Shown: positions 118 through 15,790 of the stretch, piece by piece | Position numbering within the stretch: position 1 is the first letter of the stretch | Layout: every line of letters starts with the position of its first letter | Assembly: GCA_900314345.1 (NCBI GenBank) | Contig: OMUX01000312.1 | Span: 1 to 16,851, forward strand | DNA length: 16,851 bases | Reading direction: 5' to 3' | Origin: an uncultured Erysipelotrichaceae bacterium | Lineage (GTDB): Bacteria; Bacillota_I; Bacilli_A; Erysipelotrichales; Erysipelotrichaceae | Program-made: the position numbers and the translations under genes | Notes under the pieces: model-generated | Databases searched by the model: none | The model's input: the letters and a program-made list of their open reading frames with translations, nothing else | Told to the model about the DNA's origin: nothing

Positions 118-927
118 TCACTGCAGCGGTACGTTGTAGAACTCCTCCATGGTCTTGCCGCTGTCATGGATTTCCTTTGCTGCCTCCTTGCCGACATAGC
201 GGTAATGCCATGGACTGTACATGATGCCGGTAACAGACTGCTTGCCATCCGGATAGCGTTCAATCCAGCCGTATTTCCAGGAGTTGTCGATCAGCCACTG
301 ATAGTCCAGGTACTGCGTGAAGCAGTAGTTCAGCTCACAGGCACCGTTCCAGCATCCAAGGTCCGCTGCCAGGCCGAGCTGATGCTCGGAAGCACCCGGG
401 TAGGCATCAATGGAATCTGCATAGGTGCTGCCCTGGGTGCTCTTGTAATAGTTGTAGAGATCCAGCTGGTAATAATAGGAACGGTATCCGTCCACCAGCT
501 TGAGATAAATCTGTTCATCAATGGCATCCTGGAACATCTCCTCCAGGGATTCCGCTGCTTCTTTCCTCAGCTGCTTTGTCTCAGCGCTGTGGACATTGAC
601 ATCCACAAGATCAGAAGGCACATAGTCAGCATTCACAGTCAGTGTACGGTTGACCACCCTTGTCAGGCTGTCATCAGTGATGATATCCGGCGTGGCAGTC
701 GGTTCCGGTGTGGGAACAGGCGTGGGAGCCGGTGTCGGTGCCGGTGTTTCACTGGCCTCCGTTGTTGGTGATGCACTGAACTCTGCCGTTGGCTGCGGTT
801 TGACTGCCACAGGTGCAGAAGGCATGAAATGGATATAAAGCAGTCCGCATACAATCAGCACGGACAATACGATGATCGCAATAATCTTGTTTCTGTATCT
901 GGCTTCCATGGAAGCATTATACAACAT
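118..927 (-). CDS. Membrane-anchored M15B (VanY/LdcB-type) D,D- or L,D-carboxypeptidase homologue with Glu replaced by Ser
   Basis: The family consists of zinc peptidases that trim D-alanine from peptidoglycan stem peptides outside the membrane. The 269-residue protein has a basic N-terminus, one membrane segment (about residues 14-33), and a Pro/Thr/Ala linker (about 42-80) that would span the wall. The M15B domain follows (about 90-265). Seen motifs are DGYRS (146-150), SEHQLGLAADL (180-190, zinc ligands His182 and Asp189) and SPWHYRYVG (238-246, ligand His241). The family normally has Glu directly before PWH as the catalytic acid/base. Here it is Ser238 (codon AGT), so activity is doubtful. 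The ATG at 927 has a weak GGATGG site. An in-frame ATG at 909 is an alternative, with TATAAT just in front of it. The gene is divergent from the dehydrogenase gene. The fold assignment is firm. The activity and exact substrate are not. Confidence 0.88.
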   Translation of the reverse strand: MLYNASMEARYRNKIIAIIVLSVLIVCGLLYIHFMPSAPVAVKPQPTAEFSASPTTEASETPAPTPAPTPVPTPEPTATPDIITDDSLTRVVNRTLTVNADYVPSDLVDVNVHSAETKQLRKEAAESLEEMFQDAIDEQIYLKLVDGYRSYYYQLDLYNYYKSTQGSTYADSIDAYPGASEHQLGLAADLGCWNGACELNYCFTQYLDYQWLIDNSWKYGWIERYPDGKQSVTGIMYSPWHYRYVGKEAAKEIHDSGKTMEEFYNVPLQ

Positions 928-11936: not shown

Positions 11937-11969
11937 TGTTCGACTTTTCACCTTTCTGTTATCGCATAC

Positions 11970-12001
11970 CGAATATAAAGCCCTTGCAGACAGCAAGGGC
12001 T
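11970..12001 (-). terminator. Attenuator hairpin of the rplJL leader
   Basis: On the minus strand a perfect nine-pair stem (11993-12001 with 11979-11987) has a five-base loop and is followed by TTATATT. It sits between the L10-binding leader and the rplJ start. In Bacillus subtilis the L10(L12)4 complex controls rplJL by promoting termination at a hairpin in this place. The same arrangement is inferred here. Confidence 0.75.
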
Positions 12002-12027
12002 CAAAAGTACACAGGAAATCTGACTTT

Positions 12028-12083
12028 CTACCTCGGTAACCTTATTAAGCTTGCGCCGTTACTGTCTTTGGTAATTGATAACG
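12028..12083 (-). promoter_or_regulatory. L10 leader (ribosomal protein L10-binding RNA motif)
   Basis: On the minus strand I read ACCAAAGACAGTAAC, then a GGC-GCAA-GCT mini-hairpin, GCTTAATAAG, and GTTACCGAGGTAG. GTAAC pairs with GTTAC, and an outer TACC pairs with GGTA, leaving an AAAGACA bulge. This conserved AGACAG/CCGAGG pattern, as I remember it, is the L10 leader found before rplJ in Firmicutes. It lies about 100-140 bases before rplJ, just after a predicted start of transcription and before an attenuator. A covariance-model search was not possible here. Confidence 0.82.
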
Positions 12084-12089
12084 ACTGTT

Positions 12090-12118
12090 ATGCTACTCCA
12101 GTCTCTTCATCCTGTCAA
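12090..12118 (-). promoter_or_regulatory. Promoter of the rplJL leader, inside the sortase 3' end
   Basis: A perfect TTGACA (12113-12118) and TAGCAT (12090-12095, four of six) are 17 bases apart, predicting a start near 12083. That leaves the complete L10 leader in the transcript. The -35 box forms part of the last sense codons of the sortase gene (Leu-Thr-Gly-stop), so the promoter overlaps coding sequence. Confidence 0.7.
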
Positions 12119-12913
12119 ACTATTTTTTCTTTTCAGCCAGCGGTGTACCAGGCAGCACTCTGTCATGCTGCAAAGCACCAGCAGGATGATGGCAATCCAG
12201 GGGATTCTTCTGCCATGTGCAGGCACAATTGCTGCATCACGTGCTTCTTCAATTCTGATGCCATGCACCAGCAGACGGTGTGTATTGACACCATATGGTG
12301 TACAGGTGATCAATGTACATTCATCCTGATCACCATGAATCACCAGAGAGTCTGTTTCCTGGGGAAGCACCACGGAAATACAGTCTACTTCATAGACTGC
12401 TTTTTCTCCAAGTGTTTCAAGTATGAACCTGTCCTTCTCCTGTACATCCTCAAGATCCGTGAACAACCTGCTTCCCGGAAGTCCGCTGTGGCCTGTAAGA
12501 ACACAATGCGTTCCTTTTCCGCCAACCGGAAGGGATGTGCCTTCCAGATGCCCGATTCCTGTCTGCAGAACCTTCTCAGAAGTTCCATGATACACAGGAA
12601 TCAGTACATCAATGGAAGGAATACTGATACTGTCCATCAGACCGTTGTTGACATCAAGTGTATCCAGATACAGCTGTTTTCCTTCTTCTTCAGCTGGATT
12701 TATTCTTCCTTCATGCAGGCCATTGTTGTAAGCATGTGCATCTTCCAGCACCTTCCTGCGCTTGACATCATCCATGGATTCCGCCTGCTGTTCACTGACA
12801 ATCACCGCTTTGGTCTGATGATGTGCATTCCAGGCCTGTGATACCGGCGGATACAGCAGTAATCCAAGACCTGCAAGGATCAGCAGAACACTGATCTTTC
12901 CTCTTGCATGCAC
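12107..12913 (-). CDS. Class C (pilus-polymerising) sortase
   Basis: Class C sortases are membrane transpeptidases that cut LPXTG-like signals and join pilins through a lysine. The 268-residue protein has an N-terminal membrane segment (about 7-23) and a second near the C-terminus (about 236-256), the class C layout. The catalytic residues are His142 (LTGHSGLP), Cys204 (TLITCTPYGVNTHR) and Arg213. IPVYHGTSE and GHLEGTSLPVGG are class C signatures. The N-terminal lid usually carries an Asp-Pro-aromatic motif, but the corresponding stretch (about 61-86) is short and lacks it. The start is a GTG whose G is the last base of the pilin TAG stop. Only a weak A/G-rich ribosome site is seen, so translation is probably coupled to the pilin. 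The rplJ promoter is in its last codons. Confidence 0.93.
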   Translation of the reverse strand: MHARGKISVLLILAGLGLLLYPPVSQAWNAHHQTKAVIVSEQQAESMDDVKRRKVLEDAHAYNNGLHEGRINPAEEEGKQLYLDTLDVNNGLMDSISIPSIDVLIPVYHGTSEKVLQTGIGHLEGTSLPVGGKGTHCVLTGHSGLPGSRLFTDLEDVQEKDRFILETLGEKAVYEVDCISVVLPQETDSLVIHGDQDECTLITCTPYGVNTHRLLVHGIRIEEARDAAIVPAHGRRIPWIAIILLVLCSMTECCLVHRWLKRKNSLTG

Positions 12914-14436
12914 TAGTCTTTTCTTTTCTTCAAGCCAAGCAGGCCAAGAATGATTACAGCAATACCAGCTGCTGTGATCATCTTTGTTCCCCTGCCGCCG
13001 GTCATCGGCATCATCTTGCCGGAATGGTCAATGACATCCATCTCAAAGACACCAGGCATGGATGTACCTGTGCCATTGATGGAAGAAGATCTCAGTGCAG
13101 GATTCACGCCCTCGGTATCATGCACTGCCTCAAGAGTAATCTCTGTGGCATTTTCGTAGGTCTTTCCATTGTACTCAACGGAAGAATCCATCTTGTTGTA
13201 TCCGGCAGGAGCTGTGTCTTCAACCAGAATGTACTTGCCGTCGTCAATGCCTCTGAAGATCGTATCTGCTTCTTCTGTGCTTGCCTTGGAGCTGGCTACC
13301 TTGGTTACCTTTCCGCCTTCCAGTTCCTTGTACAGTGTGAAGGCAGCACCAGGCAGTCTGTATGCCTCACCCTTGTGATCACCATACTTATGAACAACCA
13401 GTGCATGTGTGAATACCTTTACCCTGGAAGGAGAAGTTACAGCAGTATCCTCACCAAGGTTAGGATCATTGGTGTAGGTGACTGTAGCAGAAATTGTATT
13501 TGCCACTGTTCCAGTTTCTGCTGAGTTATTGAGCATTGCGGTTCCATAAACGAAAAGTTTCTTATCTGAGTTCAACACTGAAACCTTCTTTAAATCATCA
13601 ATTGATACGTTCGCAATACTATTGTTTGCATTAACATCATTGGTAAAGAAGGATGTAATGTCCTGAATTATTCCGTCATCGCTTGTCGTTGCTACGGTGA
13701 AATCATCCTGCAGTGTAATACCCGGCTCAGCGTCAATTCTCACTTCATAGCTGTACTTGTCATAGTCAGCGTAGTTGGAGGGCAGTGTGCATTCAATGCG
13801 GTATGCGAATGTATCATTTACATCATGGTCTGCAGAGGATACCCATCTGTCATCCGGAATGGATACTGCATTCATACTGATGGTTTCTTCTGCGTCATTG
13901 GCATCCACGGTCTTCATGACAATGGTGGGAATGCTGATCTTGGCGGTTACCACAACACTGCTTGTGAGATGCAGGATATGCTTTGTGTAAGAGGAATCCT
14001 CCATGTTCTGGCTTCCGTCCTGGTCCTTGATCAGATAGTAGCCGGGCATTGCCTCAATGGTTGCTTCTTCCTTCGGGGCAACTGTGATGGTCATGCTGTC
14101 ATCCGGTGCAAGCAATGCATTCTCATTGATCAGTGTCTGGGCAAATGCGGACGCATCTTCTTCTGTTTCCAGTGCCACCGCTGCTGCGGCTGCGTTGGGG
14201 TGGGCATCCTTGTACTCTGCAGTGATGCCGGTGCCCCACTCAATGTTCTCGAGAACATCATTGTTCACCGTGCCGCTGAAGATCTGGTAGAGCTCAAAGG
14301 TATGCTCTGTAACGGATGGATTCTGAATGGTAAGGCTGACGGTCGGTGCTGGTTCTTCTGCTCTTGCGGGCAAGGCGCACATCATGCATGCGGCTGCCGC
14401 TGTGAGAAGAAAAGCTGTTTTTCTGAAATACTTCAT
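12913..14436 (-). CDS. SpaA-type isopeptide-forming pilin with MPMTG sorting signal
   Basis: This is a probable major pilus subunit, exported and polymerised by the adjacent sortase. The 507 residues include a signal peptide (1-26, cleavage after ALPARA), a first pilin domain (about 30-165), a second (about 170-340, with SADHDVNDTFAYRI and TLPSNYADYDKY typical of backbone pilins), and a C-terminal CnaB domain (about 342-472). In that domain Lys350, Glu406 of the LVEDTAPAGY E-box and Asp470 are likely isopeptide residues. The sorting signal is MPMTGG (476-481), followed by a hydrophobic helix and KKRKD. VTAK (163-166) may stand in for the usual YPK pilin motif. The ATG at 14436 has TAGGAGG a few bases ahead. 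A longer frame from 14538 begins in a terminator. Part of the second domain is AT-rich. Confidence 0.93.
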   Translation of the reverse strand: MKYFRKTAFLLTAAAACMMCALPARAEEPAPTVSLTIQNPSVTEHTFELYQIFSGTVNNDVLENIEWGTGITAEYKDAHPNAAAAAVALETEEDASAFAQTLINENALLAPDDSMTITVAPKEEATIEAMPGYYLIKDQDGSQNMEDSSYTKHILHLTSSVVVTAKISIPTIVMKTVDANDAEETISMNAVSIPDDRWVSSADHDVNDTFAYRIECTLPSNYADYDKYSYEVRIDAEPGITLQDDFTVATTSDDGIIQDITSFFTNDVNANNSIANVSIDDLKKVSVLNSDKKLFVYGTAMLNNSAETGTVANTISATVTYTNDPNLGEDTAVTSPSRVKVFTHALVVHKYGDHKGEAYRLPGAAFTLYKELEGGKVTKVASSKASTEEADTIFRGIDDGKYILVEDTAPAGYNKMDSSVEYNGKTYENATEITLEAVHDTEGVNPALRSSSINGTGTSMPGVFEMDVIDHSGKMMPMTGGRGTKMITAAGIAVIILGLLGLKKRKD

Positions 14437-14507
14437 TTTTCCTCCTAGGCTTTCTGCCTGTAACAGCTTTATTGCCTGTTGGAAGGCATTTCCTCCGCAG
14501 AAAAACA

Positions 14508-14542
14508 GAAAAAAATAAAAAAAGGCAATGAATTTCACTGCC
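14508..14542 (-). terminator. Terminator between the redox gene and the pilin gene
   Basis: On the minus strand a seven-pair stem (14536-14542 with 14524-14530, one G-T pair, loop of five) is followed by seven T, an A and seven more T. It starts 11 bases after the redox gene stop and is the strongest U-tract in the window. The pilin and sortase therefore probably use their own promoter in 14437-14507. There I see no good -35/-10 pair, only two CAGGCA repeats and a weak five-pair hairpin. Confidence 0.85.
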
Positions 14543-14553
14543 CCGATGGATGA

Positions 14554-14835
14554 TCAGCCTCTTAACGCTGCTTCCAGAACCTCTCTGACATGCGCTTTTG
14601 CCTCATCATAGGTTTCCCCCAGATGGCTTTCGTAGACCTTCTCATGGTTCAGGAACATAGCTGGTGTTGCCTGATAATCATACTGATCAGCAATTTCAGG
14701 ATGTTCCATCTCATCCACCCTGTCAAACTTCACTGCTTCGTATCTCTTGTCTTCTTCCTGCAGTTCCTTGATTGCCTTGTCTGCCTGTGCGCAGTACGGG
14801 CATCCCTGGATGTGGAAATACTTCACCTCTGTCAT
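14554..14835 (-). CDS. Thioredoxin/glutaredoxin-like protein with CPYC active site
   Basis: This is a small thiol-disulfide oxidoreductase, probably cytosolic, since no signal peptide or membrane segment is seen. The 93 residues make one thioredoxin fold. A first strand (VKYFHI) leads into GCPYC (11-15) with redox cysteines Cys12 and Cys15. The conserved Thr57-Pro58 would be the cis-proline that packs against the active site. The CPYC dipeptide is that of glutaredoxins, but many small bacterial thioredoxin-like proteins share it. AGGAGG lies seven bases before the ATG at 14835. Longer frames from 14856 or 14952 have no ribosome site and cross a terminator. It is flanked by terminators on both sides, so it looks like a single-gene unit. 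A link to the pilus is only positional. Confidence 0.88.
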   Translation of the reverse strand: MTEVKYFHIQGCPYCAQADKAIKELQEEDKRYEAVKFDRVDEMEHPEIADQYDYQATPAMFLNHEKVYESHLGETYDEAKAHVREVLEAALRG

Positions 14836-14898
14836 ATACAGTCCTCCTGCATCCATAATGTATAAGAACACTAGGTTCTTTTTCCAGAAATATGCCCG

Positions 14899-14934
14899 AA
14901 GAAAAAGGAAACGCCCCGAGGGAGAGACGTTCCC
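14899..14934 (-). terminator. Terminator or attenuator upstream of the redox gene
   Basis: On the minus strand GGAACGTCTC (from 14933) pairs with GGGGCGTTTCC (ending 14908), a ten-pair stem with G-T pairs and one bulged T. It is followed by TTTTTCTTC. It lies about 65 bases before the redox gene start and about 140 bases after the rplA terminator. It therefore ends a separate short transcript, or acts as an attenuator in the redox gene leader. Confidence 0.68.
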
Positions 14935-14992
14935 TTCCCTGACCGTTTTCACAGCCAGCCATGTCTGCCGTTTAACCCGGACAGCAGTGTTG

Positions 14993-15020: not shown

Positions 15021-15068
15021 TTGCTGTCTTTGCTGATTCAGACAATCTTTGGAATATGTTTTCAGATA

Positions 15069-15097
15069 ATGAAAACCGCCGTATTTCTGCGGCGGTT
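15069..15097 (-). terminator. Terminator of the rplKA unit
   Basis: On the minus strand AACCGCCG (15097-15090) pairs perfectly with CGGCGGTT (15081-15074) around an eight-base loop, then TTCATT. It starts 16 bases after the rplA stop. It separates rplKA from the genes that lie between rplA and rplJ. Confidence 0.75.
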
Positions 15098-15112
15098 CAT
15101 TGCGGATTGTGA

Positions 15113-15790
15113 TTAAGCAACCGTTACCTTGATGCCAGGTCCCATTGTTGTGGAAACTGTAACACCCTTGATGTAGTTGCCCTTGACAGTCTGCGGCTTG
15201 ACACGAACGATCTGATCATACAGTGTCTTGAAGTTCTGAGCCAGAGCTTCATCGGAGAAGGAAGTCTTGCCGATCATGACATTGACGTTTCCATCCTTGT
15301 CAACACGGTATTCAACCTTACCCTTCTTGATCTCTGTGACAGCCTGTCCGACATTCATCGTAACAGTACCTGTCTTAGGGTTCGGCATGAGACCCTTCGG
15401 GCCCAGCAGCTTACCGAAACGGCCAAGCTTGCCCATCATGTTCGGAGTAGCGACGATGATGTCGAATCCGAGCCAGCCGCCCTTGATCTGCTCCAGCATG
15501 TCATCAGCACCGACGAAGTCAGCACCTGCTGCTCTTGCTTCTTCAGCCTTCGGGCCGTCTGCGATAACCAGGACCTTCTGTGTACGGCCTGTGCCGTTCG
15601 GAAGAACGATGGCACCGCGGATGTTCTGGTCTGCCTGACGAGGGTCAACATTCAGGGAATAGCTGACCTCAACGGAAGAATCAAACTTTGTTGTGCTGAG
15701 CTTCTTTGCCAGAGCTACAGCCTCTGCATAGTCGTATGTCTTTGTGCGATCGATCTGGGCGAGCGCTGCCTTGTACTTCTTACCTGCCAT
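15113..15790 (-). CDS. rplA: Large ribosomal subunit protein uL1
   Basis: uL1 forms the mobile L1 stalk at the ribosomal E site and in many bacteria represses the rplK-rplA mRNA. The 225 residues are close to the usual 230. Visible family features are the N-terminal [23 protein letters not shown] (49-59), the [20 protein letters not shown] signature (120-139) and the C-terminal [14 protein letters not shown] lies ten bases ahead of the ATG, inside the 3' end of rplK. Only two bases separate the genes, so they form one operon. A terminator follows at once, unlike the common arrangement in which rplJ comes next. Confidence 0.98.

What the first reader, a model, noticed from the sequence alone, without database searches (positions are those of the whole stretch)
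12107..14835. Minimal sortase-pilus locus with a redox gene inside the rplKA-rplJL-rpoBC cluster
rplA and rplJ are normally adjacent in Firmicutes. Here a CPYC thioredoxin-like gene, one SpaA-type pilin and one class C sortase lie between them, all co-directional, with the rest of the cluster in canonical order. A complete two-gene pilus system without tip or anchor pilins or a housekeeping sortase, embedded in the most conserved gene cluster, is unusual. It may place surface-pilus expression near a highly expressed, growth-rate-controlled region, or simply use a safe insertion site.
Basis: partly seen in the sequence, partly recalled or inferred. Interest (0 to 1): 0.72.

Follow-up and report, generated by a model that had tools for sequence, protein, structure and literature searches.

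The report
Pilus genes inside a ribosomal cluster
In a gut bacterium that is likely a rumen Erysipelotrichaceae, a two-gene unit predicted to build a surface pilus, plus a small gene for a predicted redox protein, sits between two ribosomal-protein genes at a junction where many relatives carry other, unrelated genes, so the address is a recurrent insertion point and probably not a special pilus-ribosome link.

The parts
14554..14835 (-). thioredoxin/glutaredoxin-like protein, 93 aa, CPYC, no signal peptide by eye
   Evidence: PF13192 26.8 bits over cut-off 24.8, scanned as the 132-aa ORF 14554-14952; sequence
12913..14436 (-). backbone (shaft) pilin, 507 aa: signal peptide about 1-26 (by eye), D1, D2 (about 167-345), SpaA-type D3, sorting signal MPMTG 476-480 with hydrophobic tail and KKRKD
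13501..13743 (-). strain-variable segment of the pilin, residues 232-312; GC 0.399 against 0.492 in the rest
   Evidence: 52 of 81 positions differ from P0002 against 11 of 426 outside
12107..12913 (-). class C sortase, 268 aa; H142, C204, R213; N- and C-terminal helices
   Evidence: NF033745 250.4 bits, cut-off 160; alignment A2; AF2 model
12090..12118 (-). promoter-like site of rplJL, TTGACA-17-TAGCAT; the -35 lies inside the last codons of the sortase
11965..12089 (-). L10 leader of rplJ; terminator-like hairpin about 11979-12001 followed by TTTATATT
   Evidence: RF00557 64.1 bits, gathering 44; consensus fold; single fold
15068..15101 (-). hairpin after rplA, CCGCCG/CGGCGG stem then TTTTCATT, terminator-like
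   Evidence: -15.6 kcal/mol, z -3.7; not listed by the consensus scan
14903..14938 (-). strong hairpin in the region upstream of trx, terminator- or attenuator-like
   Evidence: 63-nt stretch with this and a smaller hairpin: -31.4 kcal/mol, z -4.7; not listed
14508..14544 (-). hairpin plus U-run between trx and the pilin, terminator-like
   Evidence: -12.1 kcal/mol, z -3.2
15113..15790 (-). rplA, left flank
   Evidence: TIGR01169 327.6 bits
11391..11936 (-). rplJ, right flank
   Evidence: NF000955 184.3 bits

Best explanation
Between rplA and rplJ sit a thioredoxin-like gene and a pilin-class C sortase pair that is predicted to make a backbone-only covalent pilus, at a junction where 24 of 25 genomes of the genus with both ribosomal genes on one contig (this one included) have 1-12 kb of extra DNA. 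Shown: the genes, the differing cargo, and a promoter-like site plus L10 leader kept just upstream of rplJ in the loci where the leader was recognised. Inferred: because rplJL-rpoBC keeps its own promoter and attenuator, DNA placed upstream is tolerated, so the junction collects genes over time, and this genome's pilus pair is one such cargo. Predicted mechanism of the pair: the pilin is exported by its signal peptide, the sortase cleaves the MPMTG signal between T and G and joins each pilin to lysine 166 of the next, and intramolecular isopeptide bonds (K175 with N323 or N326; K350 with a C-terminal Asp, E406 as catalyst) would stiffen the shaft; a base pilin and anchoring sortase, if used, would have to come from elsewhere, for example contig C198. 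The thioredoxin-like protein looks cytoplasmic and is probably a bystander: the mature pilin has a single cysteine. Pilin-sortase transcripts likely run into the L10 leader, whose terminator hairpin would end them when free L10 is in excess.
For: Interval sizes in family and genus; six of six sister-family genomes with both coordinates in the truncated listings have 172-194 bp. Cargo differs, and the families listed for it are mostly ordinary host genes; an M24 peptidase lies between rplA and rplJ in 10 of the 25, while here it sits with its hydrolase neighbour on contig C40. L10 leader in 20 of 20 genus loci scanned. Promoter-like site scoring at least 9 of 12 within 70 bp upstream of the leader pattern in 32 of 32 non-short genus loci (20 with both genes on one contig, 12 with the rplJ side only), 24 of 24 other non-short loci (16 and 8) and 20 of 24 short ones, against 140 of 2000 random 70-mers; 8 loci without the pattern were dropped. 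Pilin fold and residues. Sortase. Backbone-only pili in Streptococcus suis srtF strains (PMC2797073; abstract and passages). L10 attenuation in B. subtilis (PMC4538822; abstract and one section). Insertion of a few genes between operons of this cluster as the usual first step of break-up (PMC8046335; passages).
Against: No expression or microscopy data. 32 of 57 genus genomes with both genes have them on different contigs and could not be counted. The pilin is below the curated cut-offs of NF033902 (46.7 against 95) and TIGR04226 (25.7 against 30). The sorting signal is MPMTG, not LPXTG. No consensus promoter was found for the pilin. The terminator scan also misses the hairpins after rplA and in the L10 leader, so its silence after the sortase is weak evidence. 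Four of 24 short sites lack the promoter-like site. A thioredoxin-like gene (40% identical) also follows rplA in G148, so the redox gene may be older at this site than the pilus pair. G148 has next to it a gene with a weak phage-integrase SAM match, and integrase and transposase matches occur among cargo proteins, so mobile elements are not wholly absent from the site.
Confidence: 0.72

Rival explanations
1. Assembly or binning chimera: the pilus genes come from elsewhere and were joined to the ribosomal contig by mistake.
For: Draft genome in 425 contigs, 83% complete. No other genome searched shows pilin or sortase here. GC is slightly lower in the cargo (0.48) than in the flanks (0.50-0.54), and third-position GC of the sortase is 0.44 against 0.60-0.64 in rplK, rplA, rpoB and rpoC, although rplJ and rplL are also low at 0.52 and 0.48.
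Against: The composition step is small. The sortase reading frame runs through the rplJ promoter without a gap. A trx-like gene follows rplA in an independent genome. Extra DNA at the same spot is the genus rule. The database clusters (90% identity) of this pilin and sortase are recorded on 5 and 4 contigs, longest 63,553 and 29,463 bases, although their neighbours could not be seen.
Confidence: 0.06
2. Expression coupling from rplKA: the insertion is selected because the pilus rides on ribosomal-protein transcription.
For: All genes are co-directional; the pilin has no consensus promoter of its own.
Against: Three hairpins with U-runs or U-rich tails lie between rplA and the pilin; cargo on the opposite strand occurs in relatives, for example the hydrolase of cluster 1 in six loci; the cargo families listed are mostly not surface-related.
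Confidence: 0.1
3. The pilin is displayed on the surface but not polymerised, as for Bifidobacterium longum FimM whose sortase is a pseudogene (PMC7719627, abstract seen).
For: No tip, no base; non-canonical MPMTG signal.
Against: The sortase frame is open, with H142, C204 and R213 invariant in 23 sequences; its start overlaps the pilin stop, so the two are likely coupled in translation; K166 is invariant in 33 pilins.
Confidence: 0.14
4. The cassette arrived on a mobile element with a dedicated attachment site at rplA-rplJ.
For: An integrase-like gene beside the trx-like gene of G148; single integrase and transposase matches among cargo.
Against: No recombinase among the window proteins scanned; no repeat flanking the cassette beyond chance (the best candidate is reached by 71 of 2000 shuffles; list); the cargo families listed are mostly enzymes and transporters.
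Confidence: 0.05

Closest known systems
Streptococcus sanguinis sortase-dependent pilins PilA, PilB and SSA1632 (PDB 8wxd, 8wgg, 9uvr)
   Different: Several related subunits are solved from that species, here one pilin alone; MPMTG instead of the LPNTG seen; D2 segment differs between strains
Pilus loci elsewhere in the same genus (for example G166 C43, G173 C33, G146 C9, G168 C28)
   Same: Backbone pilin near a class C sortase. G182 C165 shows just a sortase and a backbone pilin in the 8 kb fetched, near a contig end, so a two-gene set may not be unique
   Different: The other examples add one or more of a 1000-1600 aa tip-like protein, a 300-aa minor pilin or a 156-158-aa small pilin (judged by eye); none was seen on the contig of rplA or rplJ
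Streptococcus suis srtF pili made of the major subunit only (PMC2797073, abstract and passages seen)
   Same: Pili of backbone pilin only, made by one pilus sortase
   Different: There the minor pilin gene is present but broken; here none is present in the locus
Gene insertions that break the secE-rpoBC operon cluster in Bacilli and Gammaproteobacteria (PMC8046335, passages seen; nrdHEF between rplL and rsmC in Lactobacillaceae)
   Same: A few genes inserted inside this cluster
   Different: Different place (rplA-rplJ); the paper's main text has no match for 'erysipelotrich' or 'rplk'; here the content changes many times within one genus
Bacillus subtilis rplJL leader attenuator (PMC4538822, abstract and one section seen)
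   Same: L10 leader with a terminator hairpin upstream of rplJ
   Different: Here another gene ends inside the promoter just upstream, so its transcripts may enter the leader (untested)

Membership tests
Sortase-dependent (SpaA/RrgB-type) backbone pilin | Multi-domain Ig-like pilin fold | tested here: met
Sortase-dependent (SpaA/RrgB-type) backbone pilin | Pilin-motif lysine for inter-subunit linkage | tested here: met
   K166 invariant in all 33 aligned pilins; its role is inferred from position
Sortase-dependent (SpaA/RrgB-type) backbone pilin | E-box and isopeptide-forming residues | tested here: met
   K350, E406, N326 invariant; K175, N323 at least 90%; the bonds themselves are not testable here
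Sortase-dependent (SpaA/RrgB-type) backbone pilin | C-terminal sorting signal with hydrophobic stretch and basic tail | tested here: met
   MPMTGG plus helix 482-506 and KKRKD; TIGR01167 20.5 bits, cut-off 15.9; the LPXTG letter pattern itself is not kept
NCBIfam NF033902 SpaH/EbpB family major pilin | Score over the curated cut-off of 95 bits | tested here: not met
   46.7 bits; so it is not filed under this named subfamily
Sortase-dependent (SpaA/RrgB-type) backbone pilin | Polymerises into pili | not testable with these tools
   needs protein or cells
Class C sortase | Family model over cut-off and His-Cys-Arg triad | tested here: met
   NF033745 250.4 bits, cut-off 160; H142, C204, R213 invariant in 23. 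A DPW/F/Y lid motif (recalled) is not seen in residues 30-92 by eye; treated as variable, not defining
Canonical pilus operon (backbone plus at least one accessory pilin plus sortase) | Tip or base pilin in the locus | tested here: not met
   no further pilin among the genes between rplK and rpoC
L10 leader RF00557 | Covariance model over gathering score | tested here: met
   64.1 against 44
Mobile genetic island | Recombinase or flanking repeats | tested here: not met
   no recombinase among the window proteins scanned; flanking repeats within chance

The most novel reading that the evidence does not exclude
The rplA-rplJ junction of these Erysipelotrichaceae is a plug-in site whose right wall is a self-contained promoter-L10-leader module, and in this genome the pilus operon has no terminator of its own but borrows the L10-sensing attenuator: free L10 ends pilus transcripts in the leader, while low L10 lets them run on into rplJL-rpoBC, so pilus transcription feeds ribosome-stalk and RNA-polymerase synthesis.
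Probability: 0.2. Interest if true: 0.6.

Novelty: new member of a known kind. Interest (0 to 1): 0.4.

Why it matters
It shows that one boundary inside one of the most conserved gene clusters of bacteria is a frequently re-used insertion point in a family of gut bacteria, and offers a simple reason: the downstream unit appears to carry its own promoter and attenuator. It also gives a two-gene, backbone-only pilus candidate with a strain-variable middle domain, and a natural test of whether foreign transcripts can feed rplJL-rpoBC through the L10 leader.

Tried and rejected
Ancestral presence of the three genes: rejected for pilin and sortase, which were not seen at the interval in any other genome searched; left open for the thioredoxin-like gene, which also follows rplA in G148. 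Functional link of the redox protein to pilin folding: set aside, because the protein shows no signal peptide by eye and the mature pilin has one cysteine (C216). Direct repeats at the cassette ends: D3 looked like a piece of the L10 leader before trx, but 71 of 2000 shuffles score as high, and Rfam gave no L10 match there. Other RNA families upstream of trx: sub-threshold matches only. Plasmid search with rplA: 19 records, all at 60-80% identity, nothing of use. First scan of genome contigs with the sortase: no relative; the second scan, with rplJ, gave named relatives, which point to rumen Erysipelotrichaceae / Solobacterium (titles only). Paper searches: the listings showed nothing on an insertion at rplA-rplJ in this family or on its pili; the library lacks most subscription journals. 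Hypothesis that the rplJ promoter exists only where cargo is inserted: rejected, 20 of 24 short sites have it too.
Full report
What is there. The window is a complete contig (C161) of a draft genome of 2.28 Mb in 425 contigs, 83% complete. The closest named relatives of its rplJ are two uncultured Erysipelotrichaceae (isolates RUG503, RUG10685; RUG as a rumen label is recalled) and a 'Solobacterium sp.' from sheep rumen, 73-75% identical, so a rumen Erysipelotrichaceae is likely; the taxonomy line is. On the - strand the order is rplK, rplA, trx, pilin, sortase, L10 leader, rplJ, rplL, rsmC-like, rpoB, rpoC (rplL, rpoB and rpoC recognised by eye).

A strain-variable segment. Two close relatives in the protein database (P0002, P0003; 88 and 86% identical) differ from this pilin mainly in residues 232-312: 52 and 44 of 81 positions there, against 11 and 28 of 426 elsewhere; for P0002 only 1 of 195 positions after residue 312 differs. 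GC is 0.399 in this segment and 0.492 in the rest of the gene; 60 of 426 overlapping segments of that length are as low or lower, so the GC dip by itself is not extreme. Exchange of part of D2 by recombination is the simplest reading, but only three sequences were compared.

The sortase. It passes the class C model by a wide margin (250.4 against 160), with triad residues H142, C204 and R213 invariant in 23 sequences; the closest solved sequence is 8gr6, a putative sortase-like protein. The model has pLDDT 80.6. Its start overlaps the pilin stop (TAGTG), which suggests translational coupling. A homologue 85% identical (P0122) ends four residues earlier than this one, which continues through TTGACA.

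The redox gene. The 93-aa protein with CPYC is a thioredoxin/glutaredoxin relative just over one Pfam cut-off. Homologues occur in 22 of 70 genus genomes (this one included), elsewhere in the genome except here and in G148, where one lies 109 bp after rplA.

The site in relatives. I looked for rplA and rplJ in 145 genomes drawn from the family (128 and 129 with a match). Of 129 genomes with at least one of them, 100 had both on one contig and strand: 72 with 152-288 bp between the matches, 26 with 1.1-33.7 kb, 2 more than 600 kb apart; 28 had them on different contigs and 1 lacked one. In the genus (70 genomes) 66 had at least one gene and 57 both; 25 had both on one contig, of which 1 (G200) had 244 bp and 24 had 1.1-12.2 kb; 32 had them on different contigs and 9 had one only. 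One of the 24, G190, has a second rplJ on another contig. In the sister family only six genomes have both coordinates in the truncated listings; all six are 172-194 bp. So the short gap is the likely ancestral state and filling is recurrent, also within genera (for example g8 and g26 hold both states).

The cargo. Among 19 genus intervals compared on one locus each, shared proteins group them into six sets; this genome is a set of its own, as are G161 and G190. The commonest cargo is an M24 peptidase, between the two genes in 10 of the 25 same-contig genomes, in several with an alpha/beta hydrolase; in this genome that pair is on contig C40, 59-63% identical. Other cargo includes a serpin and a patatin (G159), a PTS-type regulator (G125), a sigma-factor/WG-repeat protein (G147), a lactonase upstream of rplJ in G141, and in G150 a 2228-aa SpaA/Cna_B protein with a relative in G158; G160 and G181 have intervals of the same size as G158. 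For a wider look I scanned 51 cargo proteins of the genus and 54 of 59 from other genera (representatives of 140-1000 aa; loci L101-L105, L163-L170 and L172 were not included). The tool lists only the 25 families matched by most members (of 61 and 88 in Pfam, 27 and 38 in PHROGs); those listed are mostly enzymes and transporters, with one IS200-type transposase match in Pfam, two transposase families and one integrase in PHROGs, one member each. No sortase or pilin of this kind was found in 68 other flank or interval loci (58, 10), and no sortase hit in the genus lies on the contig of rplA or rplJ apart from this one. In the family sample some single-contig genomes carry sortases on the same contig, none inside the interval.

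Why the site may tolerate insertions. The L10 leader is present in 20 of 20 genus loci scanned, next to rplJ. A promoter-like pair with at least 9 of 12 matches lies within 70 bp upstream of the leader pattern in 32 of 32 non-short genus loci (12 of them known from the rplJ side only), 24 of 24 other non-short loci (8 from the rplJ side only) and 20 of 24 short loci; 140 of 2000 random 70-mers do as well. Eight loci without the pattern were dropped, five of them filled intervals. In the consensus fold of 21 leaders, 4 of 20 predicted pairs, all in the terminator hairpin, show changes on both sides, with a small covariation term (-0.77). Its role as an L10 attenuator is by analogy with B. subtilis (PMC4538822, abstract and the structure section read). 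Published work on this cluster describes the same route, a few genes inserted at an operon boundary first (PMC8046335, passages).

Regulation. Terminator-like hairpins follow rplA (z -3.7), precede trx (z -4.7, a stretch with two hairpins) and follow trx (z -3.2). A weak promoter-like site lies before trx (15020-14993, 9 of 12), but the region has no more such sites than shuffles (5 against 5.8). No consensus promoter was found before the pilin. On the coding strand the terminator scan lists nothing between the pilin start and rplJ except two hairpins inside the pilin gene; as it also misses the rplA and leader hairpins, this is weak evidence. The sortase frame covers the -35 box of the rplJ promoter. 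Read-through into the L10 leader is therefore likely but untested.

Pilus completeness. Elsewhere in the genus, most pilus loci that I listed have a backbone pilin and class C sortase plus large tip-like proteins or small pilins; G182 C165 shows only a sortase and a pilin in the stretch fetched. In this genome contig C198 carries a second class C sortase (291.8 bits), a 240-aa protein with an LPYTG signal and a 209-aa sortase-domain protein near the contig end; C277 has a class B sortase (208 bits). These could supply a base and anchor in trans; that is inference. Backbone-only pili are known in Streptococcus suis (PMC2797073, abstract and passages).

Verdict. The pilus is a new member of a known kind; the address is one instance of a recurrent insertion point in the family. 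The shared-attenuator idea is the part worth testing.

Noticed in passing
window 13501-13743: Strain-variable, AT-rich segment of the pilin (residues 232-312) with near-identical flanks in P0002; looks like allele exchange in domain D2.
   Followed up: partly
L066 (own contig C198) 87-2243: Second sortase locus of this genome: class C sortase, 240-aa LPYTG protein and a small sortase-domain protein near the contig end; no backbone pilin recognised in the contig.
   Followed up: partly
L091 257-6943 and L092 (G158): A 2228-aa SpaA/Cna_B protein lies in the same rplA-rplJ interval in G150, with a 2149-aa relative in G158; G160 and G181 have intervals of the same size as G158.
   Followed up: partly
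L162 6516-8536 (own contig C40): M24 peptidase and alpha/beta hydrolase pair that in many relatives occupies the rplA-rplJ interval is here near a gene weakly matching class B sortases and a gene that looks like trmD (by eye).
   Followed up: partly
L171 852-2262 (G148): Thioredoxin-like gene after rplA followed by an opposite-strand gene with a weak phage-integrase SAM-like match.
   Followed up: partly
window 118-927 and 964-1968: Downstream of rpoC: a VanY-family carboxypeptidase and a D-2-hydroxyacid dehydrogenase; both score far below the cut-offs of the vancomycin-resistance models, so probably ordinary relatives.
   Followed up: no
L098 839-3238 (G147): Protein with sigma-70 regions 2 and 4 and WG repeats, a cargo of the same interval.
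   Followed up: no
L087 1196-1441 and L096 5345-5417: A T-box leader (G186) and a tRNA gene (G154) lie inside the rplA-rplJ interval.
   Followed up: no
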